Made by a program: the position numbers and the translations under genes | Shown here: positions 28,695 to 64,000 of the stretch, in pieces | How the letters are laid out: each line of letters opens with the position of its first letter | How positions within the stretch are numbered: position 1 is the stretch's first letter | The notes under the pieces: model-generated | Told to the model about the DNA's origin: nothing | Databases searched by the model: none | The model's input: only the letters and a program-made list of their open reading frames with translations | Source: Daphnia carinata | Lineage: Eukaryota; Arthropoda; Branchiopoda; Diplostraca; Daphniidae | Assembly: GCF_022539665.2 (NCBI RefSeq) | Contig: NC_081340.1 | Coordinates: forward strand, 8,183,357-8,247,356 | Direction of reading: 5' to 3' | Length of the DNA: 64,000 bases

Positions 28695-30998
28695 ATGACG
28701 ATGAGGTCGCTCGTGCTTCTCTTGGTCGTTCTGGCCGTCGCTTTTGCTTGCCCCAGTCAGGTAATCATCATCAATGTTTTCTTTTAAATGTAATTTAATT
28801 TTGCAAATTATATATTCTGTATTTGGTTGTGATTTTCAGACTGGGTTCAAGATTCATCAAAAGAGGTCGATCCAGCACCAGAGTCGAGAAGACAAACCAC
28901 TCAACTGGCTGGAAAAGGGTCTAGTCTATCAAATTTATCCACGCTCCTTCCAAGACAGGTAATGGTTGTTGTATATTGTCATCTAGGATGATGTTTTCAA
29001 TTTTGTATTATGTGTGATAAAGCGATGGAGATGGCGTTGGCGATCTGAAAGGTAAAAATAGTTTATAGCGATATTTCGCTTGTTCCTCTATTTCAAACTA
29101 AATGTTGGTCGTACTTGCAGGCATCATTAGTCGTTTAGACCACTTTGTTCAGTTAGGCATCAATGCCATATGGATTTCGCCCATTTTCAAGTCTCCCATG
29201 GCAGATTTTGGGTACGACATTTCCGATTTCACTGATATCGACCCGATCTTTGGCACAATCCAAGATTATACCGACCTCGCTGCCGCAGCTAAAGCTAAAG
29301 GTCTTTTCATTTTCCTTATTTTTGTAAGAGAATTCAACTTACTAAGTTTGAATGCAGGTCTGAAACTCATTCTGGACATGGTGCCAAATCACAGTAGCGA
29401 TGAGCATGAATGGTTTATCAAGTCCGTCAACCGAATCGATCCCTACACCGACTACTACGTCTGGCTTGACGGGGATGCGCCAGGTGTCCCACCTACCAAC
29501 TGGGTATCTTTTCAAATTGCTTTATTAGCTTTACACTCCAAAAAAATCACTTCAGACAATTTTGGATAATAGTTGAGCGTTTTCGGTGGACCCGCTTGGA
29601 CGTTCAACGAACAACGTGGTCAGTGGTACCTTCATCAGTTTGTAGCAAAACAGCCAGATCTCAATTATCGCAACCCTCTGGTGCACGAAGAGTTTAAAAA
29701 TGTCCTTCGCTTTTGGCTGGACAGAGGAACCGATGGTTTCAGAGTTGATGCTGTCCCCCATTTATACGAAGACCCAACCTACCCCGATGAACTTCCATCT
29801 GGCGATCCCAATGCCGATCCAGATCAGTACGGTTACTTGATTCACGATGGCATTACGTGGAACCGGCCGGAGACTTATGATGTTATGGCCGAGATGAGGC
29901 AAGTCCTCCAAGAGTACGAAGACGGCGATGGTCAACATAGAGTAATGATGACTGAAGCTTACGTCCCTTTGGAAAACGTAATCCAGTTTTATGGCAATGA
30001 ATCATTCCGGATGGCCGACTTCCCCTTCAACTTTGCTCTCATCAACGGCATCAGTAACTGCCTTTATTATTGCAACACGACAACCAGCAAAGGCTATCCC
30101 TACGATGGTACCCAACTTCGCGACACCATCGTTGAATTTTTGAACGCCATCCCTCCATGGGTTGGCCCACAGGGAGCCAATTGGGTTTTGGGCAATCACG
30201 ATCAACGTCGTTTGGCCTCGCGTTTTGGAGAAGCACTGGTCGACGGTATGATTATGGTACAAATGCTTCTCCCAGGTACACCAGTAACCTACTATGGCGA
30301 GGAGATTTCCATGAAGGATCAGTTCATTTCGTATGAAGACACACTGGACCCTCAGGGTTGTCAAATGGGACCCGATCGATACGAAAAATTTTCTCGTGAT
30401 CCCGCCCGCACACCTATGCAATGGGATGATACTTTCAATGCTGGATTCTCGACGGCGGCTGAAACTTGGCTTCCTATGGGAGAAAATTATCCAACTGTCA
30501 ACGTCAAGTTACAAAAAGAAAACCTCATTAGCCACCTTAACATTTATCGGACTATGGTCGCGCTCAGGCAAGAAGCTTCAGTTCTCTACGGTGCTTACGA
30601 TTTCCCCATAGTTGACGCCGACGCTTTCACGCTCACGAGGTAGTAAAACTCATAAATGTTTTCTCTTTAGCAGCGTTTCACTACTAGTGTGGTTGTGTTA
30701 TAGGATTCTAACCAACTCGACGAGTTACATTGTTGTCCTAAATGTTGGACTTGAAGAACGCCGTTTCAATTTGTCAGGTGTGACTGGTATTCCAGAGAAA
30801 GCCAAGGTGGTCGTAAGAAGCGTTCAAGCAATTAGTGGTGAAACGCAAATAGGGTAAGCGTTTTTAAATGAAATTTTGAGCTTTCTGATTACGCCTTTTT
30901 TATTTTTTTTATTTTTCTTCTTTAGCTTTACCATCAATACCAATGATTTCCCTGTTGGTGCCCAGGAAGGTCTAGTCCTCTCTTTCGTTGCCCTGTGA
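28695..30998 (+). CDS. Secreted GH13 alpha-glucosidase (maltase)
   Basis: Eight exons (28695-28760, 28840-28958, 29023-29051, 29121-29300, 29358-29503, 29573-30639, 30704-30853, 30926-30998) join in frame to 609 residues. It should hydrolyse terminal alpha-1,4-linked glucose from maltose and related sugars, in the gut lumen or at the cell surface. Residues 1-20 are a clear signal peptide (RSLVLLLVVLAVAFACP). The GH13 regions are all present: DMVPNHSS (region I), QPDLNYRNP (region V), GFRVDAVPH with nucleophile Asp at about 239, MTEAYVPLE with acid/base Glu at about 308, and VLGNHDQRR with the transition-state Asp at about 390. The SDGDGVGDLKG and FGYDISDF motifs are typical of the insect maltase subfamily. 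Length fits. Two ATGs lie two codons apart (28695 and 28701); either may be used. No C-terminal membrane anchor is obvious. Confidence 0.95.
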
Positions 30999-33402: not shown

Positions 33403-36400
33403 ATGGAAGGAGTTCCTAAATTGTATATGCTACGTACTGCGCTAAAGACATCGCCGGAAAAAACGGATTTCAGTCGAAAAATCAAATGGGTATGTCTTTG
33501 TCATCCACTTGATCTTTGATTTGATAATTGTTTATGATTCATCGTCTAGCAAATTCGTGAACATTTTAACGAAGACCCCAGCAGCTATGCCAATGAAACC
33601 GGAGAACTGGAAACTCTTCGAGCTGCAGCCTGCCATCCACCCCAGGATTTTACTGGCTGTGCATTATTAAAGAAATATTACTGTCAATTGAATTTTCTAC
33701 AGAATCGGTTTACATTCAACGAAGCTGGCCGTGATGAAGTCTATTTTACTTGGTGAATAAAATTTAAAAAATAAAACAATTTTTATGTATATTTTTGGAT
33801 ACATGTGCCATATTCATAATTCATGGGTTTGTTTCAGGAATGATATGTATACTGGAATGGCTTACTCCACCACTGACATCAAGCATGAGATGGCTTGTGT
33901 GCTTTTTAATATTGGAGCTCTACACATGAATTTGGGTGCCATGGATAGCCGTCAAACAGCAGATGGAATGAAAATGAGCTGTTCTCATTTTCAATGTGCT
34001 GCATGGGCTTTCCAACAGCTGAATGAAAAATACCCTCAACCAAGAGAAACTGACCTTTGCCATGAACTTGTCAAGTTTTTGAGCACAGTTTCTCTTGCTC
34101 AAGCCCAGGAGTGCATTCTAGAAAAAAGCATCATTGATGGGCGCAAGCCAGGAATTGTGGCCAAAGTAATTGAAAAATCCATTCATTTATTTATTAGTAT
34201 TATTATTATTTTTTAAAATGGAAATACCAATTTTTATTTGTTTTCTTGACCAGGTGGCAGCCCAAATAGTTGAGTACTACAAGTTAGCTGTGAAGGTTTT
34301 AGATCAGGGAGATAACCATCCAGATGGTAATGCCCTTGTCGAAGTTGCCGGTGTTAAGGCGTACAATACTTGGAAAAAGTACGCTGAATTTAAAATGGCG
34401 TTCCACCAGTGTGTGGCTCTGCTATACATGGGCATTCACAGTGAAGAGATGCAAAAGATGGGTGAAAGGCTAGCTTACTTCCAAGTATTAAAAGAATGAT
34501 GTTACAAAATTTAAAAGGTAGTTTAATTTAAAATCATTTAATTTTGTTTTCAGGCGGCAATGGACAAGTTGGCAGAAGCAACCAAAAAGGCCAAGAAACT
34601 AGAAAACAAAACGGAAAGCGTCAATGATACCATTTCTTTTGTCCATGATGTAGTTGGCGGCAAACTCAAGGCAGCCGAGAAGGAGAACGAATTCGTTTAC
34701 CACGAAAAGGTCCCTGACCGGGCCTCATTACCCGATATCAAAGGCGCGTCGCTCGTAAAGGGCACGCCGTTTGATATTCAAGATCCTGAAATCGCGGGCC
34801 AAGATATTTTCCATCGACTCGTACCGATGGAAGCCCATGAAGCGTCCTCACTCTACAGGTTTTGGAGAAGCACCTTTCACATAAAAAAAAAAACTAAATT
34901 CAACTCTCGCTTTAACTTTAAAAATATTTCAGTGAGGAGAAGGCGAAGCTGTTGCGTCGAGTCGGCGGAAATGTCGAGGAAAAAGATCAAGAATTAGATC
35001 TATTTTTGACGTCATTACAGGTTTGTCATTAATTAACATCTATACAGACCTTGAAAAAAAAAACTTAACCCTTCAAATGCAGGTAGATCAGCTACGAGTG
35101 CACTTGGAACCCTCGGGCTTACCTCAGGAACTCGTTGACATTTGCGCTCGGTTTAGTGTCGAATCGAAGGATGTAGTTCAAAGTCTGATTGAGGCAATGG
35201 GTGAGCTCTCGTCTGTCTACACTGATGTAGAGTCTTCGCTGGCCGAAGTTCAAAATCTCCTGAGCGAAGAACAAGAGAATGAAAGAATTTATCATGGTCA
35301 AGGCAAAAGGCCGCCTTCTATGATTCTGAAAGAACTTTCTCTGGAAGCTGGACGCTTTGCCGAAGCCCACGGGAAAGCTGCTGATTCCAACAATCTTCTA
35401 CATAAAGCCATCAATTCGCATCTAGGAAATCTACGAATGCTAAACCTACCATTGTCTGAAATTGAGGCTCAATTACCCAATATTCGAGTATTGGAATCTA
35501 GCAAAGATCAAGCAGCTATCAATGAGTTACATCGGCTTCTGGACAAAGTAGAAGAAATGCGCAAACAGCGCCAGATGCTTTACAGCCAGCTACGGGAGGC
35601 TCTTAAAGCTGATGACATCACCAAACTGGCCACGCATCAAGTAGATCTAGAGACGCTGTTTACTCAGGAGCTAGCGAAACATCAGCGATTGACTTCGCTT
35701 ATCGATCAAAACCTCAAGGCCCAAGAAAAAATCCTCGTGGCTCTGACAGAAGCCAATGCTCGTTACGCTGACACGCGTCGCTCTACAGCCGACATTCAAC
35801 AACGTCGAGCAGCTACTGTAAGTGCTCTGTTGTCATCTGCCGAGGCATATCCCGATCTGTTGGCCAAGTGTCAAAAAGGCTTGGAATTTTACCGCAAAAT
35901 GGACACAAGTATCACGAAACTCCTTCAGCGTTTGCGATCCGTCTGTCGTGTCCAACAGGAAGAGCGTGAACAACAAGAGGCTGCGCGGGAACGCAATCGT
36001 CCCGTTCCTGTAACAAGCAACCGAACCGAAACTCATGAGCCGGCTGATGTCCAGGGTGGTCCCAAGTTGAAAGATTTCCTCCATCTCATGAAAAAGGATC
36101 GCTCCGGAATGGACCCAGCTTTTCAGCCCACGTCTTCGGCTCCTCCACCAGGTTCTGCTGGAGCTGAAATGGCGGCACCGTTTAGCTATCCCTACCTACG
36201 TCCGACTCCTCTCGGTGCCGAACAGAGCGAACGCCATCCACAGTCCTCTGCCTACATTCCTGATGGAAATTCATACTACTATCAAAACAATTCTTCACAA
36301 GGTGGATTTCCGCCTTCTGGACCGAGTTATGATTTCCCCACGACTGAGAGGGCCCTTCCAACAAATGCTACCCAACCAAGCGCTTCTAGTCAGGCTAATT

Positions 36401-39372
36401 CAGCTTACTATAGCACTCCTCCTGCTCTTCAACAACAACGTAGCGATCCCATTAGTTCAACAAGCCAGCCGCAACAGCCACTTCATCTACCAGCAGCTGG
36501 GCAAACGTATTTGGGTCAGCAACCAAATGGGGTAGAAGGTGGTCTTCCACCTCTTGGCTCCAATGCCAATCATCAGATGCATCGACAAAATTATCCACCT
36601 TCATCCAACTATTACGGCCACATTTCGGGTGCCGGCCTTTCAACACCATACGCGGCTTCTGCCCCATCTACGCCACAACAATCGTATTCGGCAGCGTCAC
36701 AGATAGGACAGCAACCTATTGCAATGATGTCCGGATCGACTGCTACTTCCTCTTCGAGCGCAGTTCAGAATTATCCAACGACGAGTTACATGCCTGCTAG
36801 CGGAGCACCTCCAACGTACCAACAACTCCCGTCTTCTGCAGCTACGGGCTCTTTCACGCCGACCATCACGTCTGCCACGCCTCACCAGCAAACGTATGGA
36901 GCACCGACCTATTTGAACCAACCATCCACTGGAAGGGACAATGTGCCTGCCGCAACGCCTTATTCAAACACCAGTGTAGGTCTTTCTCCAACTCATCAAC
37001 AACAACAGTATCCGTACTATTCAGGCGCATCAATGTACGGCTATGCGCCAACAACAACAACAAATTCAGGAGTTTATTCATATCAATACAGCTACAGTAC
37101 CCTCAATTCCAACATGGATGGAAGTGGAGGCTTCCAGCATGGAACCACAGGCACCAATAACTCGGCTCTCGCTCAGTCAGCCGGTCATCAAGGTGAAGGT
37201 GCTTTTACCGCATCCGCATCTGGAATGGGGCAGTACCAGCATTATCCCTATTATCCGAATCCTGTTGATCCTACGAATAACTACCAGTATCAACTACCTG
37301 GATCTTACTATCAACCCAATGTTTACGCTCCGGTCGCCAACCAAATGCTGCAGCCCGCGCCACTGGCTCCAACGCCCGTAAGCGCTGCACCGGCTGTTGC
37401 AGCTCCTCCACCAGTGGCCATTCCAGCGAATCCTAATGCCGTCGGACAAGTGGCCAGCAACCTGGAACTTTTGACTCTTTTAGACCTCTCAGTTCCCATG
37501 GCTCCTGTTGGTGGCCTGTTGGAACCACAGCCACGAGAAACTCAGGGCCCTGGTGGTAACACTCAAGGCACGACGACGCTGACTAATGCCACCTCAAAGT
37601 CGGTTATGATGGCTCCCGCTGCGACGTCAGATCAGGTCAAACTAACTACCATCTCGTCTGCTACTGAGTTTTTGCCACATCATGAAGCACCGGTCGTCAA
37701 GACGGAAATCAAGTTGCCTTCTGTCCCAAATGTTAGCCACAAGGATCCTTTGGCTGACGCAGAATTAGCGTCTAAATTAGCAGTCGAGGTCGAGAAATTG
37801 GACAAACTCGTGGGCGGTTTGACTCGCAAAAGTCTGAATGGACCAACCTCATTGGACACGCGTTGGAAGGAAGTGCTGGATTTGCAAGAGCGTGAATCAG
37901 CCCGTCACAGCATTTCAGTGGCACGGTGTTACCCCATGAAGAACCGATTCCCAGATGTGCTACCTTACGACCACAATCGCGTGGAACTGCCTACAACAAA
38001 AGATGATTACATCAACGCCTCTTTGGTTCCGTCTTTATCACCTGGCGCTCCCTCTTTCATCGCCACTCAAACGCCACTGCCGTGTAGCCAGCAGGACTTT
38101 TGGACGATGATATGGCAACAATCGGTTGAAATTGTTGTTTGTTTACTGTCGGATGCCGAAATTCCTAAGCCTAGCCCTTCTACCTCGGCTGTTTATTGGC
38201 CAGTTGAAAAGGGTCGTGATATCACATCTGGCCCATGGACCATTACACTGCAAAGCAGTAATACCCGCCCGTATTGCCATGAACGTATCCTCGGCCTCAT
38301 CAAAAATGTACTTTTTAACACTTTACTACAAAATGTGAAGAGATTTTTTTAACATTTTTCATATTTAACTTTTTGATTACAGGGAGAAGCGAAACAACGC
38401 GTCGTCGTACATTTGCAATTTACGGCCTGGCCTGGAAGTAGTTTTCCCGCATCTCCAGCCCAATTTCTTCAATTGACGAGTGAAGTACTTCATTTCTGGC
38501 AGCAACAACGGAGTAAGGCGCATCCCATCGTCGTCCACTGTTTGGCCGGTGCTGGACGTACAGGCCTTTTTTGCCTCCTCTTGACGGCGTTGTCTGATCT
38601 TTCTTCAGGTACGTCAATCAACACACCAGTCTTTTGATTTACATGACGTTCGTATCAATCAATGACGTTTTACAATAGGGAACGGACTGTTGGATGTGGT
38701 CCGAGTTGCTGCAAGTCTTTGCCAGCATCGAAGAAATATGTTCAGAGACCGCGAGCATTTACTCTTTGCTTATCAGGCCCTACTTTATCACGCCCAGGAT
38801 TTACTCATGAAACGTATTTAGAAATTTATTTTTGTCGTTTTTTATTGTGTTATGGCTACGTTCTATTTTTGTGTGTCGTTGATCGACAATAGGAGGAATT
38901 CTGTCTGGAACGACGTCATTACAAGGATCTCCTATCAAGAAGCTTCATCCATCTCAAGATTTCATTCACTCTCCGACCTCTACTTCCGCAACAAGTAATT
39001 CGGGAAATAATCTCTTGCAAAACGTGGATATTAACTTGTGGCAATAAAACCATTTTAGATCCAACACCTGTTTTGGAGGCAGCTGCAGAGATGTTAAAAC
39101 AAGAGAATAAAGAAGAAGTGTCATCGCAAGTAATCCAGGAGCCCACTGCATCGTCGTCACCGCCACCTGTGACGGATCCTCCCACTCCCAAAAAGAATCC
39201 TCTAGGTGCATTGGCTATCCTTGATCCGGCCAACTTTACACTCGACGGTGGCCAAACAAATCGGCACCGGGTGACGAAAGAGAGTTTCAAAAATGCCTCA
39301 CAGCTCGGCTCGATGGCTGACCCTTCTGATCCACTCAGCCAACTCGATCCTCTGTGGTCACTGGCCAAGTAA
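33403..39372 (+). CDS. mop: HD-PTP / Myopic, BRO1-domain tyrosine phosphatase-like protein
   Basis: Eleven exons (33403-33489, 33550-33752, 33838-34165, 34254-34484, 34554-34858, 34933-35020, 35083-38307, 38383-38608, 38679-38813, 38893-38994, 39059-39372) join in frame to 1747 residues, similar to fly Myopic and human PTPN23. The protein works with ESCRT in sorting ubiquitinated receptors at endosomes. Residues about 5-385 are the BRO1 domain; about 390-710 are the helical V domain (LRVHLEPSGLPQEL onward). About 740-1250 is Pro/Gln/Tyr/Ser-rich with many PYY and YPYY repeats, and a PTP domain lies at about 1340-1605. The PTP pTyr loop (KNRF) and signature HCLAGAGRTG (Cys about 1542) are present, but the WPD loop reads WPG (about 1505-1507). 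The C-terminal tail is Pro/Ser-rich. Exon 7 alone is 3225 bases. Identification is firm; catalytic activity is doubtful. Confidence 0.95.
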
Positions 39373-46778: not shown

Positions 46779-49574
46779 GGGGGCAACTCATCTCTTTAGT
46801 GTTTCACACTCCAACAGCTATAATTTACCAGTCTCCGACATTTCTCTATTTGGGATTCCAGGACGTTTGGTCTTTTTTTTTTCCCCCTCTTTTTTCAGAC
46901 CCACAACAATTGTAACCTTTTTCAGGTGTTAGGTTACATGTTTGTAGGTTTTTTCCCGTTGTATTATACGGCTGCTGTATGTGCGCAAGCAATTCCTACC
47001 AACTGATTAATAAAATAAAAATAAAAGTATTTTCAAATGGTTTCTACTTGGGTACTAGAAAAAACAGCAAAAGCAGCTGTGACTGTTTTAATTCGTCTGC
47101 GGACTTTCAGTCGAATCCATTGTTGGCCTGACCGATGCCGTTTCGTTATGGTTCAGTTTAGTAGTCGTAGTAATTGTCAATATTCTTTGGCATATCGGTG
47201 TGTCCCACAGTACCGTTCCCACCGAGAATCGGATAGGCAAACGATTTGGAAAGGGAAAAGAAATAAGAAAAAAAGAATAGAGAGAGAAAGGTGTATATGT
47301 AGCATTATAATGCTATGCAAATTGCGCCATCCGCCTCGGGAGAGAAGAAGATGCTATTTTGTTTTGTTTAGAAGCCAGACACACAAGGACATAAAGAGAC
47401 GGACGTTTAAGAAAAGGAAGAAAAAAAAAAGAACCAGCAAAGAGAAAAGGCCCCAAACATCGTGAAAGAGAATAACATCATGTAGGCCAGCAGCATATAC
47501 AACGACGTTAAAAAATCTCTCTCTCTGACTATCCAAACAGGTGAAAGCGCACGGCTTTTGACATCAAATGGGTCTATACTGACGTCTTTGAATGCACAGC
47601 AGCAAAACGTAACTTTGGCAAAAGATGAGAGTTGAGATCAAGACTCTTGAGTCGAAAAAAAAACGTTACATACTGTACGTATTGAACAGTTTACTTTTGA
47701 TGCTTAATACCTTATTAGGACATTGCAAAGTGATGACAATCTCAGACACAGGTCAGTGACATTCCTAGTAAATCAATAAATCGGAGGCGTTCAAAAAATT
47801 TGACATAGGGGCCGTATGGCTTTACTTTTGACTTTACTTGGAAAATTTTCTCACGCTATCAATGACTCGGCTACATTTTTGTTTACCTTTTTTATGGGAA
47901 ATGTGCGAATCACTGTCATGGTGACAGCGTTGGCCTTGGAATGCACATAAAGATATCGATTGTAGTCTTTTTATCTATCCCATTCATACGATTTATCAGG
48001 AAAAAAAAAACAATAATAAATTAAAAAACAAAACAAACAATAACCTCGGTGGTATCTTTTTATTTGCCGAATTGGAGTTATATTTAATGCTGTCCTCCCC
48101 TCCCCTCACGCACTATGTGGCGCCACAGCATTCTTTAGCATACAACAGGTGACAACACCGCACAAGAGTACTTACCCAATTCTCACTTTGATTTATAAAC
48201 AAAAGAAGTATGGAATCAGAGTCTAGTACACAAGTTGACGGCTTCACCATCAATCTTTTTACCTATCATATTGTCTTTTGTTTTCTGTTCTCGGCTCATC
48301 CCATCTCGATCATCTCGTTGTGTTTACCCATGTGAAAAAAAAAGTGTTCGTTTTTTTGCACTACAGTTTTGCATACAGTATGTGTGCGTGTAGTACATCA
48401 TTAACAAACTGTGTACTGTCTGCTTGCCTATAGTTTCACATCTGGCTCGGTGGCTCCTTTCACCGCATTTGTTCTACATTGTTGATCTTGTGGCACGACT
48501 ACCTGGCAATTATCAAATTGTGCCTGATCTACCTTATGTTTTAAGTCATAACGAAGTTCATAACGAAAAACAAACCCGACAGCTTGTTACTATTATATTA
48601 CTCTTCCTTTTTTGTTTACAACACTCAAATTTTGCATATCCTACTCCATTCCATTTCGCATCATTTGTGCGTTTTGTAGCAAGAAATATGGTACGCCCAG
48701 AGCGGAATGGATTAATTGTTAGATTTTGAACCAACTTCGAAATTGATTGTGCATGCAATAATTGCAAAACGGTCAAGATGGAGGAATCATGGTTGGGATG
48801 TTTTTACAACACTTTGAACTGCGTATCGAACTGCCCGTACCATTGTTATGATAAAGCTTTGCCTCAAAACACAATCACGCCTAAAACGTTATTTCCAGAT
48901 GATGACTTTCGCCCACTCGTAGTCTCTTGGCTTGTCTGTTTCATTTAGCAGACTACTGAGTATTGACATGTGTCGGTGCTGCTCAACAAAAATACGCATT
49001 TAAATCAAAATATTGAAATATATAGATTTCCACTTCAAACCAAACATAAATTTTATGCAATTCTAATATGGCAATCCCTTTTACCCTCCCCGCCCCCCCC
49101 CAAAAATGACCTTTTTTTTGTTTTACTGCTATCGCCATCTCCCGGTCAGATTTCTAGGTAATTCTCTACATACACACACCGACTATTTCTGCTGCATCGC
49201 CTTAGCGCTGTAGCGTACTGGCTCGCTAGCATTGCATCAAATATTCGGTGTATTCCAAAAACGATTAACTTAATGAAAAAAAATAGCAATTTTCCCGGAA
49301 TCAGCATTCAATTTTGAATATATCCTGGGGGTGGATGAAACGGATTGCCATATATTCTAATGTTATTTTACTTTTCTATTTATTTTTTTTATGGCATCAT
49401 TTCAAACAAAGGCAACTGTTATTTCCTACTTAAGAGACACCTGGTGGCCCACATTTCTATCTTTTGGTCAACGTAGTGAGTTTGCAGAATCTTTTAAGTA
49501 AAACCATCATTGCAACTTGGCGAGCAATTTTTTGATAGTTAGTTTATACATTTTGGTTGTTAAAAAAGAAGAAC
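46779..49574. other. Gene-free region before PSMB4
   Basis: No supported exon. A Lys/Arg-rich frame at 47037-47465 looks like an artefact of A-rich sequence. A short segment at about 49085-49165 resembles another at 55300-55395 (dispersed repeat). Confidence 0.5.
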
Positions 49575-53784: not shown

Positions 53785-54692
53785 ATGGCACAGCAACAGT
53801 TAGCAGTGTTTCTTAGTGAGTTATACTTATCGGAACAAAGAGTAAATGATGCTTTAACTGGAGAAAATGTGAATACTAGTGTTGCAAGTGAAGCACTGAA
53901 AAACCTCACCCGATTTGTGTCAGAAAATGCACCTAGTCTTCCAGCATATGAATTGAGAAGAGCTCATAGTGAAATAACAAAATTAAAAACTAGAATCTTA
54001 GATATTGAGGAAAAAACAAGACGTCAAGGAAAATTCAAGTTCACTAGGACAAGAAAAGAGAAGTCCACAGTTGGTAACACACCACCAAAATGCCCCGAAG
54101 ATAAAGCAAAAAATGTCAGAGTTACTGAAGATCTATTTCCTACCCTTTGTAATATAAAAGGTGAAACAATAATCATAGACTCACAGGATTCCTCCAATAA
54201 AGACATTTGGCTTGACAATTTGGAGAAAAGCACAATCATAATAAATGGAATCCCAAGTGCACTTCATGTGACACATTTAAATGATTGTAAAGTAGTTGGA
54301 GGGCCAGTACAGACATCAGTCTTTTTGGAAGATTGTTTTCGTTCAACCTTTGTGATCGGTTGTCAACAGATGCGTATACATAAAACTAAAGAATGCGACT
54401 TTTATCTTCATATTGGCAGTCGCATTATAATCGAAGATTGTCGTGCGTGCCGTTTTGCTCCATACCACAGGTGATATTTAAATTCTATGCAAATTATGTG
54501 AGCTTATGATTTTTAACATCAAACATTCTAAATAGAGAGTATTTGGGAAAAGCAGAGGAGTTTAATCACGCGAAATTGGAGCTGGCTGTAAACAACTGGA
54601 ATAGTATCGATGACTTTAATTGGTTGTCAACAGAACAATCACCTAACTGGTCAATTTTACCAGAAAGTGAAAGAATCCAGCTGCAGGTTTAG
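53785..54692 (+). CDS. TBCC: Tubulin-specific chaperone C (cofactor C)
   Basis: Two exons (53785-54470 and 54536-54692) join in frame to 280 residues. TBCC acts with cofactors D and E to trigger GTP hydrolysis on beta-tubulin and release folded dimers. An N-terminal helical region is followed by a Lys/Arg-rich linker and the C-CAP/RP2-type beta-helix (about 115-240). The arginine finger is in GCQQMRIHKTKECDFYLH (Arg about 197). The C-terminus has DDFNWLSTEQSPNWSILPE, which is the typical family ending. A weak alternative splice (donor at the last CAG, acceptor near 54809) would add another short tail, but the family ends here. It closes the three-ORF cluster. Confidence 0.93.
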
Positions 54693-55594
54693 ACACTCGT
54701 AATACTGCTAATGGTTCACTTAGGCTAAAGCAAAACAAATATATTGTAATGTGTACCATGAATTCGAACCTTTGTTCTTTCTTTCCTGATCTGTTTAAAT
54801 ATTCAATAGGTTTTAGAATTTCACTTTATGCTAGAGCCTCCATCCCCATCCACAAACAGGCTAATTGACATCGGTGTCCTAGGAAACTAAGGTAAGTATT
54901 CATATTTGTATTTATGAGGGTAAAAGTTACATTATTTGTATGTTGATGATAAAACAGAAAATGTCTTCCCTATTTAAGAGTTTGCCTTATTTTAAAGATG
55001 TCATTATTTAAGTGTCGCGGTTTGTTCTCCATCGGTAAGAGATGGCAATTGGGGTGGAATAGGGAGCTGGTCACGGATAAAAAGATTTATGAGGGGAGCG
55101 ATTATCTAATGCCGAGCAAAAAGTAAAAAAAGCTGCAAGCTTTGTGACAACCCGCAAATCCTTAAAAAAGAGTTTGTATTTGAAAGTCTCCTGTATCATA
55201 GGATCTCCATATCAGGAGGAAGGCTAAGCATTAAAAATTTGTCTTCTAATACTAAACTGTACTCGTTAGTTTCGTATGGTACTTTGGTGTAGGGCTATGG
55301 TGATCCGTTTTACCCAAAAAAAAAATATTTCGGCCTTTTTTTCTTTTTTACAGCTATGGCCATCTATCGGCCAGATTCCTATTTAATTTTCTAAATACAA
55401 CTTTACGCATTCTAGCCATATAAATATATAATTTTTTTAATTAATAACTTTATTTTATTAAAATATAACTATACAATAATTATTTTGTTATATTCTACTT
55501 ACTTAACTTCATTATTGTGTAACTATTGTGTAACAGTGTGAAGGACATTTTGCCAGAGTGTCCACAAGCTGGTGGGGGCGGCGGTAGTGGTCCG
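54693..55594. other. TBCC 3' flank leading into the inverted repeat
   Basis: No supported gene. The outer edge of the left repeat arm cannot be fixed because its mirror lies past the window end. A segment at about 55300-55395 resembles the one at 49085-49165. Confidence 0.45.
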
Positions 55595-57807
55595 TTGACG
55601 TCACAAAATAAGATGAAAATATCGAAACATGTGTTCGAACTTAACTTCTTGGTGCTTTTTATAGTATGGGGAAGGGGGACATTTCTCGAAGGATTGTCCA
55701 CAAGAGGGTTGCGGCGGTGGTGGAAGTCGCACCTGCCATGAGATAAACAAAAAACAAAAAAAACATCATTTTTAGTGCTCATTTATAACGAAGAAGAGGG
55801 CAATGTAGCAAGGGATTTTCCTCAAGGAGGAAGCATTGGTAGCAGCAACTGTTACTATGTAAACATCAATTATAGCTTCACAAAAATATTTTATGTTCCA
55901 GTGTTCATTGTTTTGCTCCTAGTGTAATGAAGCTGACCACACCTCGAAAGGCTGCCCGAATCTCTTCAGTGAATTGACGGAAGATGGAAAGTCACATGAG
56001 CAATACATTCCAGAAGCTGTGACATGCGATGAAAAGAAACTGTTTAAGGGCATCGTCTGTATGGGAATGCTTTAACCATATTGATAAAGTTGTCCTCCAT
56101 GTAAGCCATTTCTCGAAACTATATTTTTTAAAACTTATCTATTGGGTTTGCTTTAGATTACAGAAAAAGATGTACCTTAATACAGAACATCATTCGGAGA
56201 AGCCGGCCTGTACCAACTACTACTTCAAAACATTAAGAATTCTGGCTACATAAAACCAACACCTGTTCAGAAAGCTTCAGTTGTAGTTATTCTTGCCAAA
56301 AGAGGTTTAATTGCTTGTGCCGTCACGGGCTCCGGCGAAACGGCACTCCAATTAATTATCGCTGTGTAATTTTGAAACCTTGATGCCCTCGAACTGAATT
56401 GATTCGAATGGGTCGGTATGAACTGGGTAAGTTGAAGTAAAAGTAATTTTGAGTGGGCACGCCGGTTATTGCGACTACTAAAAGGTCCAATTGCATCTAA
56501 GATACTCAACAAACCCTTCGTGATATTCGTTGATTAAGTCATCTAAAATTTTACATTTTTTCATGCAGGCGGCGTACTTGGTACCGGTTATGAACATATT
56601 GTTAGAACAAGGCGCTGCTGGTGCGTCTCATGCCATGAGGCAAAAGCCAGAAGTTGTAATTGTCGCACCCACTCGTGAATTGGCCATTCAAATTCATCGC
56701 GAGGCGTGTAAATTCTCCTACAGTTCGGTTTTAAAGTCTGTGATTATATATGGAGGAACTTTCACGAGCTATCAGCGGTCAAATCTTCAAGCTGGGTGCA
56801 ATATTTTTGTCGCGAGCGCGGGGCGATTCAAGGATTTTCTCGACCGTGAAGTATTTGGCTTCTCGGGAGTCAGGTTTTAAATTTTGGACGAAGCTGATCG
56901 AATGCTTGATATGGGTTTCGGTCCCAATGTTGAAACAATTGTCAATCATCCAACGATGCATCCGAAAGTATGTCCTCGATGGCTTTTGAGTATGAAATTT
57001 GACTGATGTAATACTATTTGTTTCTCTGTAGGGAATCCGTCGTGTTTGTATGTTTTCAGCTACGTTCCCAGATGACGTACAAGCGCTGGCTGCGACGTAC
57101 GTGGAAGACTACATATTCGTCACAACAGGCATTGTCGGTGGCACCAATCCGGATGTTGAACAATTGTTTTTTTTTTTAGTGCTCGAAAAGAGATAAGAGA
57201 GCTAAGCTGATCGAAGTTTTACAAGATCTCGGTGATGCCAAGACTATCGTTTTTGTCGACAGCAAAAAGACGGCGGATTTCGTCGCTGCATTCTCGTGCA
57301 ATAACAACTTACAAGTAATAATCAAAACTGTTGGAATTGGGCAAAGTGTCTTAACTTTAAATGTCTAGACTACCAGCATCCATGGTGAGCGTAAAGGAAA
57401 ATCGTAAATGTCTCTTCCGAAGCTTCTGTCAGAAGAATATGCTAGCAATCAACTCACGAATCATGTAAGGTATGAAATATATATATGAATAAAGAGTTTT
57501 TATGCCTAATGGTGTTTTACTGTCTTATTATAGATGAACAATAAAAGCCGATGTCGAGGTGACGAAGAAAACAACACGTCGAGGTGCTGTCGAACGTGTC
57601 TCCGTTCCGGAGAAGGAAGCGCCGAAAGGCAAAAGGCGTCGTGGTGAAACGAAAGCCAATAAATACGTTGCTGGATTGGATGATGTAGAAATGTTACACG
57701 AAGGCAAAGGACACGCTGCCGACATCCACGCCAATCACGTACCAGATGAACCGGAGGCGAACGAAGAATCGCCAGTCACATCCGTCAAAAGTGGACGGTT
57801 AGGTTAG
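55540..57807 (+). pseudogene. Decayed vasa-like DEAD-box helicase, left copy
   Basis: Fragments in several frames match a Vasa-type helicase in order. They are a CCHC zinc knuckle with Gly-rich spacer (EGGHFSKDCPQEGCGGGG at about 55675-55730); the upstream helicase block and Q motif (SGYIKPTPVQKASV, near 56240); motif I; motif Ia APTRELAIQIH; motif II LDEADRMLDMGF at about 56885; motif III MFSATFPDD; and motif IV TIVFVDSKKTADFV. Defects are clear: motif I reads TGSGETA with Lys changed to Glu, stop codons fall after the motif I block and directly before motif II, and the SIHGERKGK fragment is followed by a stop. Motifs V and VI (HRIGRTGR) were not found. Apparent introns remain, so it derives from a genomic copy, not a processed transcript. 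Confidence 0.8.
57559..57807 (+). CDS. Basic/acidic tail ORF, left copy (82 codons)
   Basis: An open frame of 82 codons follows the helicase remnant, rich in Lys, Arg and Glu (MTKKTTRRGAVERVSVPEKE, then KGKRRRGETKANK and an acidic end). It is open upstream to about 57544 and identical in the right arm. It could be the last exon of the original helicase gene or part of another gene. I recognise no domain; there is no direct sign that it is expressed. Confidence 0.35.
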   Translation: MTKKTTRRGAVERVSVPEKEAPKGKRRRGETKANKYVAGLDDVEMLHEGKGHAADIHANHVPDEPEANEESPVTSVKSGRLG

Positions 57808-58949
57808 GTTAGAAATAAAACCATTTGCTGATACTACCTTTCATATATTGTTATCACAAATAGGAGCATTACATATTGGCAGCCATGTAGCTTTGTAGTT
57901 GCTTCGAAGAATTTTTTTTCCTTGTCTGGTGATTGGTTGGTAATGTTGCCCATTCTATTGTTAACTTTTTTCTCTAGATTAATGCCATAAAACATTTATT
58001 TTAGGACTTTGAATACGTCCTATCCTTATAGCCATGGAACACTTGACATCTACTCCATTTACACTTGCAGAAACAAAAACGAACATATTTGCAACAAGTA
58101 TTTTTTGTGATCATGAAACAAAAAATTGTGAATTTTTTAAAGTACCTATATTTAGAAGACATCTAGCGGAGGAATTGCTTGTTACAGAGTTCTACTGAAC
58201 TGTCAATTTGTTCGTTGTCAGTGGGCTATATCGAGTTTGGTTGCCATAATAATGGTTGCCTCGCGAATTGGAAATGCTTTGCCGAATCCCAGGATATCGC
58301 CAAGTGTGCCATATTGTCATAATCGTTTTCTCCTTAGGGTGGTTACCAATGTGCAGTTGAATTCTAAAAGGAAAAAGCACAAGTTCTTGGTGAAAACTTG
58401 TTGTGCAGCATACCACGCCATTAATAGCTTATTGAAAAGTTCTGGTTACTTTCTGCTTTGTTTCCAGGTTTTGTTTGATATGCTATATTTAAAGAACTGA
58501 TGTTGGCACCAGCTTGAAGGGAAAGTCATTTCCAATGTGGTAGGAGATTTATCTAGAATTGCATTAACATTCTAATTAAACACGAGAAATTTTTCTAGGG
58601 CACAGGGAAACTTGGATTTATTTGGTGATAGTCGGATGGTTTACCTGAAGTTGCAGTTTGAAATAACCTTTCAAAGCCTAAACTCATCTTTGTAGAAAGG
58701 GACTTGTAAGTAAACAAGAAGCATTTTCTGCCTTTTTGCTAACTATATCTAACCTACATACATTTCTGTTCAATAGTTAATGTTGGTTTTTTTTTATTTT
58801 TAATAAAGGTGAAAAGTAACGGCTGGCACTGTAAATGTTCTTGGTTTGGGGCAAGACATTGAATTAATTTTGATGATTGGATGGACAACATGGAATTCTA
58901 CCCTTTATTCATATTCCCCAAACGGTATTTAAAATTCAAAAATTGAAGT

Positions 58950-59320
58950 GCATATCTGGGCTCCCTTCCTTTCCGTAGCCCCGTTTCCCCTTGACTCGTA
59001 ATAAGCCCGTAGGGGGTCATGCCCCTACTGTACGGTATATATAAAAATAACATATACCGAGGTTTGGAGGGCTCTGACCGGAAAGGGGACGTGGGGGTCC
59101 GCTTAGTCCGATGATGTGTTCACGGAGGGCGAAGTGGCTATCCACAAATCCGAACTAAAGGTTAATCGCTCCAGTAAAAATGTTCCATATCTTCGGCTCT
59201 TCTTCCGGCTTCTCTTAGCCAATCACCGGGTAATCTCCCCGGTGGGTCAACAAGGCAGCGTCTCCCCCTGCCTGGGTTGATGGCAACTTTTGAAAGGGCT
59301 ATTGTGCCTTTTTAAAGTTG
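58950..59320. other. GC-rich, hairpin-rich block in the left arm
   Basis: A sharply GC-richer block inside AT-rich DNA. Perfect stems include 59009-59015 with 59022-59028, 59033-59040 with 59052-59059, 59225-59230 with 59238-59243, and 59253-59258 with 59268-59273 nested inside 59247-59251 with 59276-59280. On the minus strand an ATG-less frame of 49 codons ends at a stop near 59163 (VDPPGRLPGDWLREAGRRAE within it). It may be a structured RNA, a regulatory element, or the 3' end of a retroelement. Identity unknown. Confidence 0.5.
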
Positions 59321-59537
59321 CAAAAATAATTCTAATGTGCAGAGAATTGTCAATAAAATTTTTTTTATAATGTATTTTTTGCAAAATTTGTTTCTTTCAT
59401 TGTCTGTGTTCGCTGTGTTCACACATTAATTTATCAACTTTTTTTTGTTTAACTTGCTCAGTTCATCTTTAGGGTTTTTGCCACCTTTGAATTGTTTCCA
59501 TTGATTTATCGTTTATTTATAAGCATTCAATTATTAT

Positions 59538-59600
59538 CCAGGGATCGAACGCTGGAATATTGGCATACCGCGCCGATGCTCTACCAATGAGCTATGAATC
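59538..59600 (-). pseudogene. Degenerate tRNA-like sequence A
   Basis: Read on the minus strand there is a D-arm (GCTCATTGGTAGAGC), an anticodon-like stem-loop with one mismatch and a B-box-like CGTTCGATCCC with a bulged T-arm. The acceptor stem does not pair. It lies in the repeat spacer. Confidence 0.4.
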
Positions 59601-59721
59601 ACTGTATATTAAGTTGGCTTTTTTCTAGTCACTTGCGGACTTGCATTTACACTTAGAATAAAACTGATATGCAATACTGCAATATTCTTTTCTACATTTA
59701 TTCAGCTTCATTTTAATACAT

Positions 59722-59790
59722 GTACTGAGATTTGAACCCAGGGTAACAGGTATCGCAGCTGTAGGCTCTATCACAGAGCTATGGACCTTA
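59722..59790 (-). pseudogene. Degenerate tRNA-like sequence B
   Basis: On the minus strand a D-arm (GCTCTGTGATAGAGC) and a well-formed T-arm (CTGGGTTCAAATCTCAG) flank an imperfect anticodon stem. No acceptor stem pairs. It lies in the repeat spacer. Confidence 0.4.
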
Positions 59791-59887
59791 TAAAAACAGT
59801 AGAAAGATAAACATATAGTTGTGATAGACTGCATAAACATCCTAGACGATAAGATATGATATGCGATAATAAACAATTTAGATATAT

Positions 59888-59953
59888 CTCGTAGCTCAAT
59901 GTTAGAGCATAGGCGTTGCACGCTAAATGTCTGAGGATCGGTTCCCATACGAG
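59888..59953 (+). tRNA. tRNA-like sequence C (Ala-TGC-like), probably non-functional
   Basis: Six bases at each end pair perfectly (CTCGTA with TACGAG). The D-arm is GCTCAATGTTAGAGC and a loop GTTGCAC gives a possible TGC (Ala) anticodon with T33 and A37. The T-arm (GGATCGGTTCC) is compressed and the whole is only 66 bases, so it may be a decayed gene or a tRNA-derived element. Confidence 0.3.
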
Positions 59954-60276
59954 TGAAACAAAATACAAATTCAAAATAGCTTCTAAAATTATCCAGGTAT
60001 TAAACATTGTTCCTTGAATCTAAGTTAAAGAATTCAAAGAGTGTAATAAATAACAATTACAAGCAGACTAACCCTACAGCAACAATAACAATACTTACAG
60101 TTAAAAAATAAACTAATGGAAACAATGAAGATGAATTGAGCAAGTTAAACAAAAAAAAGTTGATAAATTAATGTGTGAACACAGCGAACACAGACAATGA
60201 AAGAAACAAATTTTGCAAAAAATACATTATAAAAAAAATTTTATTGACAATTCTCTGCACATTAGAATTATTTTTG

Positions 60277-60647
60277 CAACTTTAAAAAGGCACAATAGCC
60301 CTTTCAAAAGTTGCCATCAACCCAGGCAGGGGGAGACACTGCCTTGTTGACCCACCGGGGAGATTACCCGGTGATTGGCTAAGAGAAGCCGGAAGAAGAG
60401 CCGAAGATATGGAACATTTTTACTGGAGCGATTAACCTTTAGTTCGGATTTGTGGATAGCCACTTCGCCCTCCGTGAACACATCATCGGACTAAGCGGAC
60501 CCCCACGTCCCCTTTCCGGTCAGAGCCCTCCAAACCTCGGTATATGTTATTTTTATATATACCGTACAGTAGGGGCATGACCCCCTACGGGCTTATTACG
60601 AGTCAAGGGGAAACGGGGCTACGGAAAGGAAGGGAGCCCAGATATGC
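60277..60647. other. GC-rich, hairpin-rich block in the right arm
   Basis: Mirror of 58950-59320. Here the 49-codon frame runs on the plus strand, 60286-60435, with a His (CAC) where the left arm has Arg (CGC); all the hairpins are retained. Confidence 0.5.
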
Positions 60648-61789
60648 ACTTCAATTTTTGAATTTTAAATACCGTTTGGGGAATATGAATAAAGGGTAGA
60701 ATTCCATGTTGTCCATCCAATCATCAAAATTAATTCAATGTCTTGCCCCAAACCAAGAACATTTACAGTGCCAGCCGTTACTTTTCACCTTTATTAAAAA
60801 AAAAAAAAACCAACATTAACTATTGAACAGAAATGTATGTAGGTTAGATATAGTTAGCAAAAAGGCAGAAAATGCTTCTTGTTTACTTACAAGTCCCTTT
60901 CTACAAAGATGAGTTTAGGCTTTGAAAGGTTATTTCAAACTGCAACTTCAGGTAAACCATCCGACTATCACCAAATAAATCCAAGTTTCCCTGTGCCCTA
61001 GAAAAATTTCTCGTGTTTAATTAGAATGTTAATGCAATTCTAGATAAATCTCCTACCACATTGGAAATGACTTTCCCTTCAAGCTGGTGCCAACATCAGT
61101 TCTTTAAATATAGCATATCAAACAAAACCTGGAAACAAAGCAGAAAGTAACCAGAACTTTTCAATAAGCTATTAATGGCGTGGTATGCTGCACAACAAGT
61201 TTTCACCAAGAACTTGTGCTTTTTCCTTTTAGAATTCAACTGCACATTGGTAACCACCCTAAGGAGAAAAACGATTATGACAATATGGCACACTTGGCGA
61301 TATCCTGGGATTCGGCAAAGCATTTCCAATTCGCGAGGCAACCATTATTATGGCAACCAAACTCGATATAGCCCACTGACAACGAACAAATTGACAGTTC
61401 AGTAGAACTCTGTAACAAGCAATTCCTCCGCTAGATGTCTTCTAAATATAGGTACTTTAAAAAATTCACAATTTTTTGTTTCATGATCACAAAAAATACT
61501 TGTTGCAAATATGTTCGTTTTTGTTTCTGCAAGTGTAAATGGAGTAGATGTCAAGTGTTCCATGGCTATAAGGATAGGACGTATTCAAAGTCCTAAAATA
61601 AATGTTTTATGGCATTAATCTAGAGAAAAAAGTTAACAATAGAATGGGCAACATTACCAACCAATCACCAGACAAGGAAAAAAAATTCTTCGAAGCAACT
61701 ACAAAGCTACATGGCTGCCAATATGTAATGCTCCTATTTGTGATAACAATATATGAAAGGTAGTATCAGCAAATGGTTTTATTTCTAAC

Positions 61790-62038
61790 CTAACCTAACC
61801 GTCCACTTTTGACGGATGTGACTGGCGATTCTTCGTTCGCCTCCGGTTCATCTGGTACGTGATTGGCGTGGATGTCGGCAGCGTGTCCTTTGCCTTCGTG
61901 TAACATTTCTACATCATCCAATCCAGCAACGTATTTATTGGCTTTCGTTTCACCACGACGCCTTTTGCCTTTCGGCGCTTCCTTCTCCGGAACGGAGACA
62001 CGTTCGACAGCACCTCGACGTGTTGTTTTCTTCGTCAC
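61790..62038 (-). CDS. Basic/acidic tail ORF, right copy
   Basis: Identical in translation to the 82-codon ORF at 57559-57807 and open over the same span. Function unknown. Confidence 0.35.
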   Translation of the reverse strand: MTKKTTRRGAVERVSVPEKEAPKGKRRRGETKANKYVAGLDDVEMLHEGKGHAADIHANHVPDEPEANEESPVTSVKSGRLG

Positions 62039-64000
62039 CTCGACATCGGCTTTTATTGTTCATCTATAATAAGACAGTAAAACACCATTAGGCATAAAAA
62101 CTCTTTATTCATATATATATTTCATACCTTACATGATTCGTGAGTTGATTGCTAGCATATTCTTCTGACAGAAGCTTCGGAAGAGACATTTACGATTTTC
62201 CTTTACGCTCACCATGGATGCTGGTAGTCTAGACATTTAAAGTTAAGACACTTTGCCCAATTCCAACAGTTTTGATTATTACTTGTAAGTTGTTATTGCA
62301 CGAGAATGCAGCGACGAAATCCGCCGTCTTTGCTGTCGACAAAAACGATAGTCTTGGCATCACCGAGATCTTGTAAAACTTCGATCAGCTTAGCTCTCTT
62401 ATCTCTTTTCGAGCACTAAAAAAAAAACAATTGTTCAACATCCGGATTGGTGCCACCGACAATGCCTGTTGTGACGAATATGTAGTCTTCCACGTACGTC
62501 GCAGCCAGCGCTTGTACGTCATCTGGGAACGTAGCTGAAAACATACAAACACGACGGATTCCCTACAGAGAAACAAATAGTATTACATCAGTCAAATTTC
62601 ATACTCAAAAGCCATCGAGGACATACTTTCGGATGCATCGTTGGATGATTGACAATTGTTTCAACATTGGGACCGAAACCCATATCAAGCATTCGATCAG
62701 CTTCGTCCAAAATTTAAAACCTGACTCCCGAGAAGCCAAATACTTCACGGTCGAGAAAATCCTTGAATCGCCCCGCGCTCGCGACAAAAATATTGCACCC
62801 AGCTTGAAGATTTGACCGCTGATAGCTCGTGAAAGTTCCTCCATATATAATCACAGACTTTAAAACCGAACTGTAGGAGAATTTACACGCCTCGCGATGA
62901 ATTTGAATGGCCAATTCACGAGTGGGTGCGACAATTACAACTTCTGGCTTTTGCCTCATGGCATGAGACGCACCAGCAGCGCCTTGTTCTAACAATATGT
63001 TCATAACCGGTACCAAGTACGCCGCCTGCATGAAAAAATGTAAAATTTTAGATGACTTAATCAACGAATATCACGAAGGGTTTGTTGAGTATCTTAGATG
63101 CAATTGGACCTTTTAGTAGTCGCAATAACCGGCGTGCCCACTCAAAATTACTTTTACTTCAACTTACCCAGTTCATACCGACCCATTCGAATCAATTCAG
63201 TTCGAGGGCATCAAGGTTTCAAAATTACACAGCGATAATTAATTGGAGTGCCGTTTCGCCGGAGCCCGTGACGGCACAAGCAATTAAACCTCTTTTGGCA
63301 AGAATAACTACAACTGAAGCTTTCTGAACAGGTGTTGGTTTTATGTAGCCAGAATTCTTAATGTTTTGAAGTAGTAGTTGGTACAGGCCGGCTTCTCCGA
63401 ATGATGTTCTGTATTAAGGTACATCTTTTTCTGTAATCTAAAGCAAACCCAATAGATAAGTTTTAAAAAATATAGTTTCGAGAAATGGCTTACATGGAGG
63501 ACAACTTTATCAATATGGTTAAAGCATTCCCATACAGACGATGCCCTTAAACAGTTTCTTTTCATCGCATGTCACAGCTTCTGGAATGTATTGCTCATGT
63601 GGCTTTCCATCTTCCGTCAATTCACTGAAGAGATTCGGGCAGCCTTTCGAGGTGTGGTCAGCTTCATTACACTAGGAGCAAAACAATGAACACTGGAACA
63701 TAAAATATTTTTGTGAAGCTATAATTGATGTTTACATAGTAACAGTTGCTGCTACCAATGCTTCCTCCTTGAGGAAAATCCCTTGCTACATTGCCCTCTT
63801 CTTCGTTATAAATGAGCACTAAAAATGATGTTTTTTTTTGTTTTTTGTTTATCTCATGGCAGGTGCGACTTCCACCACCGCCGCAACCCTCTTGTGGACA
63901 ATCCTTCGAGAAATGTCCCCCTTCCCCATACTATAAAAAGCACCAAGAAGTTAAGTTCGAACACATGTTTCGATATTTTCATCTTATTTTGTGACGTCAA
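61790..64000 (-). pseudogene. Decayed vasa-like DEAD-box helicase, right copy
   Basis: Mirror of the left copy with the same lesions: TGSGETA in motif I, the stop before the DEAD box (about 62713), and no motifs V or VI. The 116-codon frame 62714-63064 holding APTRELAIQIH is identical to 56530-56880. The zinc-knuckle end runs to the window edge, so the 5' part is cut. Confidence 0.8.

What the first reader, a model, noticed from the sequence alone, without database searches (positions are those of the whole stretch)
55595..64000. Near-perfect giant inverted repeat with a short spacer
Two arms of at least 3.88 kb are reverse complements with a constant coordinate sum of about 119,595 and only scattered differences, around a unique spacer of about 645 bases. 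Such palindromes are unstable and usually kept by gene conversion, by being recent, or by selection (amplicon, dosage or sex-linked regions). The right arm continues beyond the window, so the size is a lower bound. The arms are not identical (homopolymer changes, a 1-nt indel, a missense difference), which argues weakly against a simple computational duplication.
Basis: seen in the sequence. Interest (0 to 1): 0.8.

Follow-up and report, generated by a model that had tools for sequence, protein, structure and literature searches.

The report
Palindromic copy of a Daphnia transposon
The giant mirror-image stretch is real and is one of several in this water-flea genome: a copy of an abundant mobile-looking DNA repeat, carrying scraps of other genes, whose two halves have become near-identical mirror images, probably through DNA repair that folds the element back on itself.

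Summary
Confirmed. The arms (window 55526-59469 and 60128-64069) are 99.75% identical around a 658-bp spacer. The genome is Daphnia, close to D. magna. The spacer is not unique: it is the core of a repeat with 398 candidate copies, 40 scored. The feature is a ~9.5-kb copy (55296 to 64819; its right end lies 819 bp beyond the window) bounded by end motifs that occur 1,242 times in the genome against 1 control match. An ordinary 5.2-kb relative already has a central inverted repeat around that core, and other copies are giant palindromes too. The arms carry fragments of a vasa-like helicase and of a basic protein, with no clear sign of coding constraint. At six of six palindromes the arms are each other's closest relatives. 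Best reading: a non-autonomous, Foldback/Galileo-like DNA transposon whose built-in inverted repeat seeds fold-back repair and arm-to-arm gene conversion. Against it: four of six large palindromes are not centred on the core, and no transposase or convincing target duplication was found. No reads were available. A hairpin-RNA role is possible but untested.

The parts
55296..59469 (+). Left arm: outer end 55296-55526, then the near-identical tract 55526-59469; lacks ~0.52 kb near 55527 that the right arm has
60128..64000 (-). Right arm; continues 819 bp beyond the window to 64819 in window numbering (C10:8248175)
59470..60127 (.). Spacer = core of the repeat family; 59480-60060 has 398 candidate copies (40 scored, 87-89% identical apart from itself)
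55296..55314 (+). Left end motif TATGGTGATCCGTTTTACC (2 differences from TATGGCAATCCGTTTTACC); its partner at the right end, TATGGCAACCGTTTTACC on the minus strand, lies outside the window at 64819
58922..59469 (+). Left half of the central inverted repeat that the ordinary element (L045) already has
60128..60675 (-). Right half of that central inverted repeat
56530..56880 (+). Vasa-like DEAD-box helicase fragment, left arm
   Evidence: PF00270, E 4e-12; a sister copy is nearest to Vasa among solved structures
62714..63064 (-). The same helicase fragment, right arm
57559..57807 (+). Fragment of a basic protein whose long open copy lies at C6:10085-10086.6 kb, left arm
61790..62038 (-). The same basic-protein fragment, right arm
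57797..57812 (+). Junction GGTTAGGTTAGGTTAG of a deletion shared by both arms; mirrored at 61785-61800
59717..59788 (-). tRNA-like relic in the core (16.6 bits, E 2.4, far below Rfam's cut-off; better preserved tRNA-like relics in other copies)

Best explanation
The inverted repeat is a palindromic copy of an abundant, non-autonomous, transposon-like repeat of Daphnia. The ordinary form (example L045, 5.2 kb) has inward-facing ends TATGGCAATCCG..., a core of about 0.5 kb with tRNA-like relics, and a central inverted repeat of about 0.6 kb around the core; its halves otherwise differ (shown). In the window copy both halves are the same: a half carrying fragments of a vasa-like helicase gene and of a basic-protein gene stands on each side of the core (shown). 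Inferred: the central inverted repeat is the seed; when a break is repaired the resected strand folds back, anneals at the inverted repeat and copies the surviving half outwards, and later arm-to-arm gene conversion keeps the inner tract identical up to large indels. That the element moves, and that the helicase and basic-protein pieces were captured from host genes, are also inferred.
For: Ends: 642 forward and 600 reverse copies of the end motif at up to 2 mismatches, reversed control 1. Ordinary form with central inverted repeat, 94.5% over 640 columns. Core shared by many loci. Half-core-half palindromes predicted from a search with one half of L045 (6 inverted pairs, inner gaps 1882-2144 bp, 2110 expected) and confirmed in the one fetched (L048, 2339-bp arms, 98.8%, 604-bp spacer). 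L048 and the C4:2203k copy stay mirror-symmetric at least 0.12 and about 0.11 kb past the end motifs, into different flanks. Left and right arms sisters at 6 of 6 loci. In the window the outer ~200 bp have 6 substitutions, the inner 3.9 kb have 3, and both arms share one deletion junction.
Against: Four of the six large palindromes (C10:5146k, C4:1717k, C4:2203k, C4:5024k) are not centred on the core, and a seventh palindrome, L038, has the helicase piece but neither core nor end motif, so the core repeat is not the only seed. In the window the palindrome ends at the end motifs on both sides, as if it had moved as a unit. No transposase ORF in L044 or L045. Of 8 elements tested for target-site duplications only the short one at 49067-49352 shows a near one, 7 of 8 bases. 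The two window ends are only 217 bp long in the tree and their placement has low support (0.13).
Confidence: 0.62

Rival explanations
1. A palindromic master element arose once and spread by transposition; long terminal inverted repeats are the family's architecture, and each copy's arms stay alike by gene conversion. No new fold-back event was needed at this place.
For: Both arms reach inward-facing end motifs with unrelated flanks. The window and the C8 copy share the centre. Six half-core-half pairs have similar inner gaps and 98-99% identity to the query.
Against: Palindromes of the family have different centres and different outer edges, some past the ends, some short of them. No convincing target duplication at the window copy.
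Confidence: 0.27
2. Assembly or library artefact (fold-back chimera or collapsed haplotypes).
For: Only one assembly could be examined and no reads; artificial palindromes from mis-scaffolding are known (PMC7953838, passages).
Against: A 658-bp spacer rather than a sharp turn; arms differ by 3 substitutions, 5 small indels and a ~0.52-kb indel, and the outer ends diverge. Similar structures with their own sequence recur on contigs C4, C6, C8, C9 and C10.
Confidence: 0.04
3. A selected structure: a hairpin-RNA or piRNA source against vasa-like transcripts, or a dosage amplicon.
For: The helicase fragment recurs at 150 or more places and sits in palindromes with and without the core. A D. magna study reports three piRNA clusters that overlap ATP-binding helicase genes, not shown to be these loci (PMC9175491, passages).
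Against: No small-RNA or expression data; dN/dS near neutral; palindromes without a vasa piece are as common in the control search (6 pairs in 40) as in the arm search (6 pairs in 40).
Confidence: 0.07

Closest known systems
Foldback-like DNA transposons, in particular Galileo of Drosophila (P superfamily)
   Same: Long inverted repeats of very different length between copies; internal segments recruited into the terminal repeats, many defective copies (PMC4168063, passages).
   Different: Here the inverted repeat is central, around a core, and can grow past the element's end; no transposase or P-type target duplication is shown; arms carry host-like gene fragments.
Pack-MULEs and MULEs with long or multiple terminal inverted repeats in plants
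   Same: Long inverted repeats, gene fragments as cargo, many copies (PMC3310237, abstract and outline).
   Different: No Mutator transposase or 9-bp target duplication seen; here the gene fragments lie inside both mirrored arms.
Inverted duplication by fold-back at inverted repeats (yeast, human)
   Same: Spaced and diverged inverted repeats anneal in single-stranded DNA and give inverted dimers (PMC10164571, passages).
   Different: There chromosome-scale dicentrics; here transposon-sized interstitial palindromes, mechanism only inferred.
Gene-bearing palindromes of Y chromosomes and of some parthenogenetic animals (Adineta vaga, Folsomia candida)
   Same: Arms thought to be kept alike by gene conversion (PMC7953838, passages).
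   Different: Those are counted by gene order and hold annotated genes; these hold gene fragments in a repeat. That survey could not screen D. pulex for palindromes.

Membership tests
DNA transposon with terminal inverted repeats (non-autonomous) | Many dispersed copies with shared, inward-facing inverted ends | tested here: met
   642 forward and 600 reverse motif matches, control 1; paired ends on fetched elements
DNA transposon with terminal inverted repeats (non-autonomous) | Target-site duplication of fixed length | tested here: inconclusive
   8 elements, 2-10 bases: one 7-of-8 match (window 49067-49352), no convincing one at the other 7; a TA duplication cannot be told from the ends, which begin and end with TA
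DNA transposon with terminal inverted repeats (non-autonomous) | An autonomous partner with a related transposase | not tested
   No long ORF in L044 and L045; no genome search for transposases was made
Foldback/Galileo-like element (P superfamily) | Long inverted repeats of variable length, recruitment of internal sequence into them | tested here: met
   0.6-kb central repeat in L045, 2.3 to 11.2-kb arms in other copies
Foldback/Galileo-like element (P superfamily) | P-superfamily transposase and related termini | not tested
   No transposase in hand; termini were not compared with Galileo
Pack-type element (transposon with gene fragments) | Fragment of a gene whose fuller copy lies elsewhere | tested here: inconclusive
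   Basic-protein fragment: long open copy at C6:10085k, 89% identical, although a helicase-bearing repeat lies beside it there. Helicase fragment: parent gene not located
Hairpin-RNA (hpRNA) locus | Transcribed long hairpin giving siRNAs against a target gene | not testable with these tools
   No small-RNA or expression data; host vasa gene not located
Palindrome under gene conversion | Arms of one locus more alike than copies at other loci | tested here: met
   Sisters at 6 of 6 loci in an 18-sequence tree and at 4 of 4 in a 13-sequence tree; recent copying would give the same

The most novel reading that the evidence does not exclude
Daphnia carries a transposon that works as a palindrome factory: its built-in inverted repeat makes repair fold back and mirror whatever lies beside it, and the resulting palindromes with vasa fragments are transcribed into long hairpin RNA that feeds back on the germline helicase that the piRNA pathway needs.
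Probability: 0.06. Interest if true: 0.85.

Novelty: new variant of a known kind. Interest (0 to 1): 0.45.

Why it matters
If right, a common animal repeat brings its own seed for making kilobase palindromes, so the birth, spread and upkeep of palindromes could be followed across many copies in a laboratory animal that can be kept clonally. It also warns that a palindrome in an animal genome need not mean sex linkage or selected gene dosage, and it marks many vasa-like matches in Daphnia genomes as repeat cargo.

Tried and rejected
Chance or a simple assembly turn-around: unlikely given the spacer, the indels and the recurrence. Sex-linked or dosage amplicon: no support found; the fragments evolve close to neutrally. 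PDS5 as source of the second gene fragment: my guess, rejected, since PDS5 lies at C4:908-912 kb; the C6:10085k gene has no Pfam domain at E 0.01 and three unnamed homologues. Host vasa gene: not located; by my own reading of their translations L046 looks like DDX23/PRP28 and L047 like DDX10 (no database gave these names). Intact tRNA genes in the spacer: none by ARAGORN in the window or L045 and none above Rfam's cut-off in the window; the C8 copy passes at 31.3 bits. PDB searches with two L038 pieces gave nothing. Literature: nine searches listed no paper that, by title and start of abstract, describes this Daphnia family; preprints and most subscription journals are not held. Daphnia pulex DNA-transposon paper PMC2884549: three passages seen, no matching family in them.

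Rows left out: rows under 100 bases; arms under 150 bases, and 6 of its 12 segments are single 10-kb stretches that may miss a partner arm; pieces under 60% of the query; one search matches of 150 columns or less to the segments; pieces under 90% of the query, one sequence per locus in the sums. The genome tool scored 40 of 1270, 40 of 398, 40 of 743, 150 of 310 and 32 of 394 candidates. For pair counts I used the 40 main rows (62 matches in all) and the 40 scored copies; its three further short pieces (C2:5737k twice, C3:12989k), all in direct orientation to a neighbouring copy, were left out.
Full report
Observation. Self-comparison of the window gives one inverted match besides the trivial one: 55595-59469 against 64000-60128, 99.77% over 3877 columns, 3 substitutions and 5 small indels. 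The window is C10:8183357-8247356 of a 108-Mb genome in 106 contigs. With the next 10 kb fetched, the near-identical tract is 55526-59469 against 64069-60128 (99.75%), the spacer is 658 bp, and beyond a ~0.52-kb indel the outermost ~0.22 kb still match at 93-95%. The element ends at 55296 and 64819.

Organism. A maltase exon at 29573-30643 is 96% identical to D. magna maltase A3 and 87% to a D. sinensis protein. The genome is Daphnia, close to or the same as D. magna; the species is not settled.

A repeat, not a unique structure. The left-arm query 56000-59000 gave 62 matches from 40 scored of 1270 candidates. The spacer query gave 398 candidates; the 40 scored include itself, the others at 87-89%, and it aligns over all or most of its length with four other loci. 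The left end reads TATGGTGATCCGTTTTACC, the right end, on the other strand, TATGGCAACCGTTTTACC. The common form TATGGCAATCCGTTTTACC occurs 642 times forward and 600 times reverse with at most 2 mismatches; the reversed control occurs once. Short elements of 156-286 bp with two such ends exist, one in the window at 49067-49352.

The ordinary form. L045 (C1:3467127-3472369) is 5.2 kb, has these ends and no stop-to-stop frame above 142 codons. It holds a central inverted repeat, 1866-2482 against 3623-2984, 94.5% over 640 columns, around the core; its outer halves are otherwise different. The core has tRNA-like relics: 27.9 and 25.5 bits in L045 (E 0.0017 and 0.0077; Rfam's cut-off is 29), 31.3 bits in the C8 copy, 18-20 bits three times in L048, and 16.6 bits (E 2.4) in the window. 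ARAGORN predicts no tRNA in the window or L045. Their role is unknown.

Palindromes recur. Of 12 fetched segments, 6 (the window included) hold inverted arms of at least 2.9 kb at 98.4-99.97%; the other 6 are single 10-kb pieces that may miss a partner. As a control without the helicase fragment I searched with one half of L045: among 40 scored copies, 12 form 6 inverted pairs with inner gaps of 1882-2144 bp, near the 2110 bp expected if that half were mirrored around the core; one direct pair of such copies was seen (C1:11159888 and 11167240), and three short pieces in direct orientation were left out. One of the six was then fetched: L048 is half-core-half, 2339-bp arms at 98.8% around a 604-bp spacer, and stays mirror-symmetric at least 0.12 kb past both end motifs, to the edge of the stretch. 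At C4:2203k the arms run about 0.11 kb past the ends into another flank; at C4:1717k and C10:5146k they stop 341 and 730 bp inside the left end motif, with none found on the right in the DNA fetched. Inverted neighbours within 25 kb outnumber direct ones 12 to 1 in the 40 main copies together (two-sided binomial 0.003; 0.36 pairs of any kind expected for 40 random places; the pairs were counted by eye). In the 150 helicase-fragment matches the excess is weaker: 30 to 15 (p 0.036), and 15 to 7 without contig C6 (p 0.13).

Arms evolve together. In a tree of a 1.56-kb arm piece (18 sequences, 12 loci) left and right arms are sisters at all 6 palindromic loci; in a second piece (13 sequences) at all 4 loci that have both arms there. 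In the window the outermost 200 compared bases differ by 6 substitutions and 9 gap columns, and the two ends are not sisters in a tree of 9 short end sequences (support low), while 55595-59469 differs by 3 substitutions. Both arms share one deletion junction; at 10 of the other 11 loci 0.9-1.9 kb stand between the same two points, and C8 lacks a larger piece there (junction letters compared with two loci). Conversion or re-copying between arms, stopped by large indels, would leave this pattern.

Cargo. The arms hold a DEAD-box fragment; a sister copy is nearest to Bombyx and Drosophila Vasa among solved structures (93 and 78 bits, DDX3X 66). They also hold a fragment of a basic protein whose long open copy lies at C6:10085-10086.6 kb. 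Summed pairwise dN/dS is 0.81 for the helicase fragment (12 loci) and 0.89 for the other (10 loci): no clear coding constraint. Relatives of the helicase fragment (29 proteins, up to 86% identical) occur in public metagenome and other sets without organism names. L038 (C9:1761k) is another palindrome, 2037-bp arms at 99.6% and a 624-bp spacer, with the same helicase piece and a YIF1 piece but neither core nor end motif; the seed model does not explain it.

Mechanism. Best reading: a non-autonomous transposon-like repeat whose central inverted repeat lets a resected strand fold back and copy one half over the other, followed by arm-to-arm conversion. In yeast, spaced inverted repeats with up to about 25% divergence fold back in single-stranded DNA and give inverted dimers (PMC10164571, passages). 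Galileo recruits internal segments into its terminal repeats (PMC4168063, passages). The repair steps are inferred. Against it: four of the six large palindromes are not centred on the core; no transposase is in hand (none was searched for genome-wide); no convincing target duplication; and a palindromic master that transposed would explain the window copy about as well.

Verdict. A real, well-defined structure of a known kind with unusual features. Nothing found points to sex linkage or selected dosage. A hairpin-RNA role is the most novel reading left open and has no direct support here.

Noticed in passing
window 49067-49352: A 286-bp element with the same two end motifs, flanked by a 7-of-8-base possible target duplication.
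   Followed up: partly
C6:10283741-10756691: 25 helicase-fragment matches in 0.47 Mb in both orientations, many with the same score; possibly a young amplified cluster.
   Followed up: no
C47:11321-32307: Seven Helicase_C matches about 3.48 kb apart on one strand: a tandem array.
   Followed up: no
L038 (C9:1761001-1766000): A palindrome with 2037-bp arms that combines the helicase piece with a piece of YIF1 (PF03878) and open frames of unknown kind, without core or end motif.
   Followed up: partly
window 57797-57812 and 61785-61800: GGTTAGGTTAGGTTAG at the deletion junction in both arms; TTAGG is the arthropod telomere repeat (recalled), so a repair trace is possible.
   Followed up: no
L045 2560-2599, 2760-2799 and 2840-2879 (core): Blocks with 2-6% mismatch among copies beside stretches with 36-50%, hinting at constraint in the core.
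   Followed up: partly
L037 (C6:10085001-10092000): A long open frame for a basic protein of unknown family with a helicase-bearing repeat just downstream.
   Followed up: partly
L026 8731-8821 (C7:11291001-11301000): A predicted tRNA-Ser (anticodon cga) beside a copy of the repeat.
   Followed up: no
window 53785-54474, 35023-38352, 29573-30643: Ordinary gene exons near the palindrome: tubulin-binding cofactor C, a BRO1/ALIX-type protein with a tyrosine-phosphatase domain, and a maltase.
   Followed up: partly
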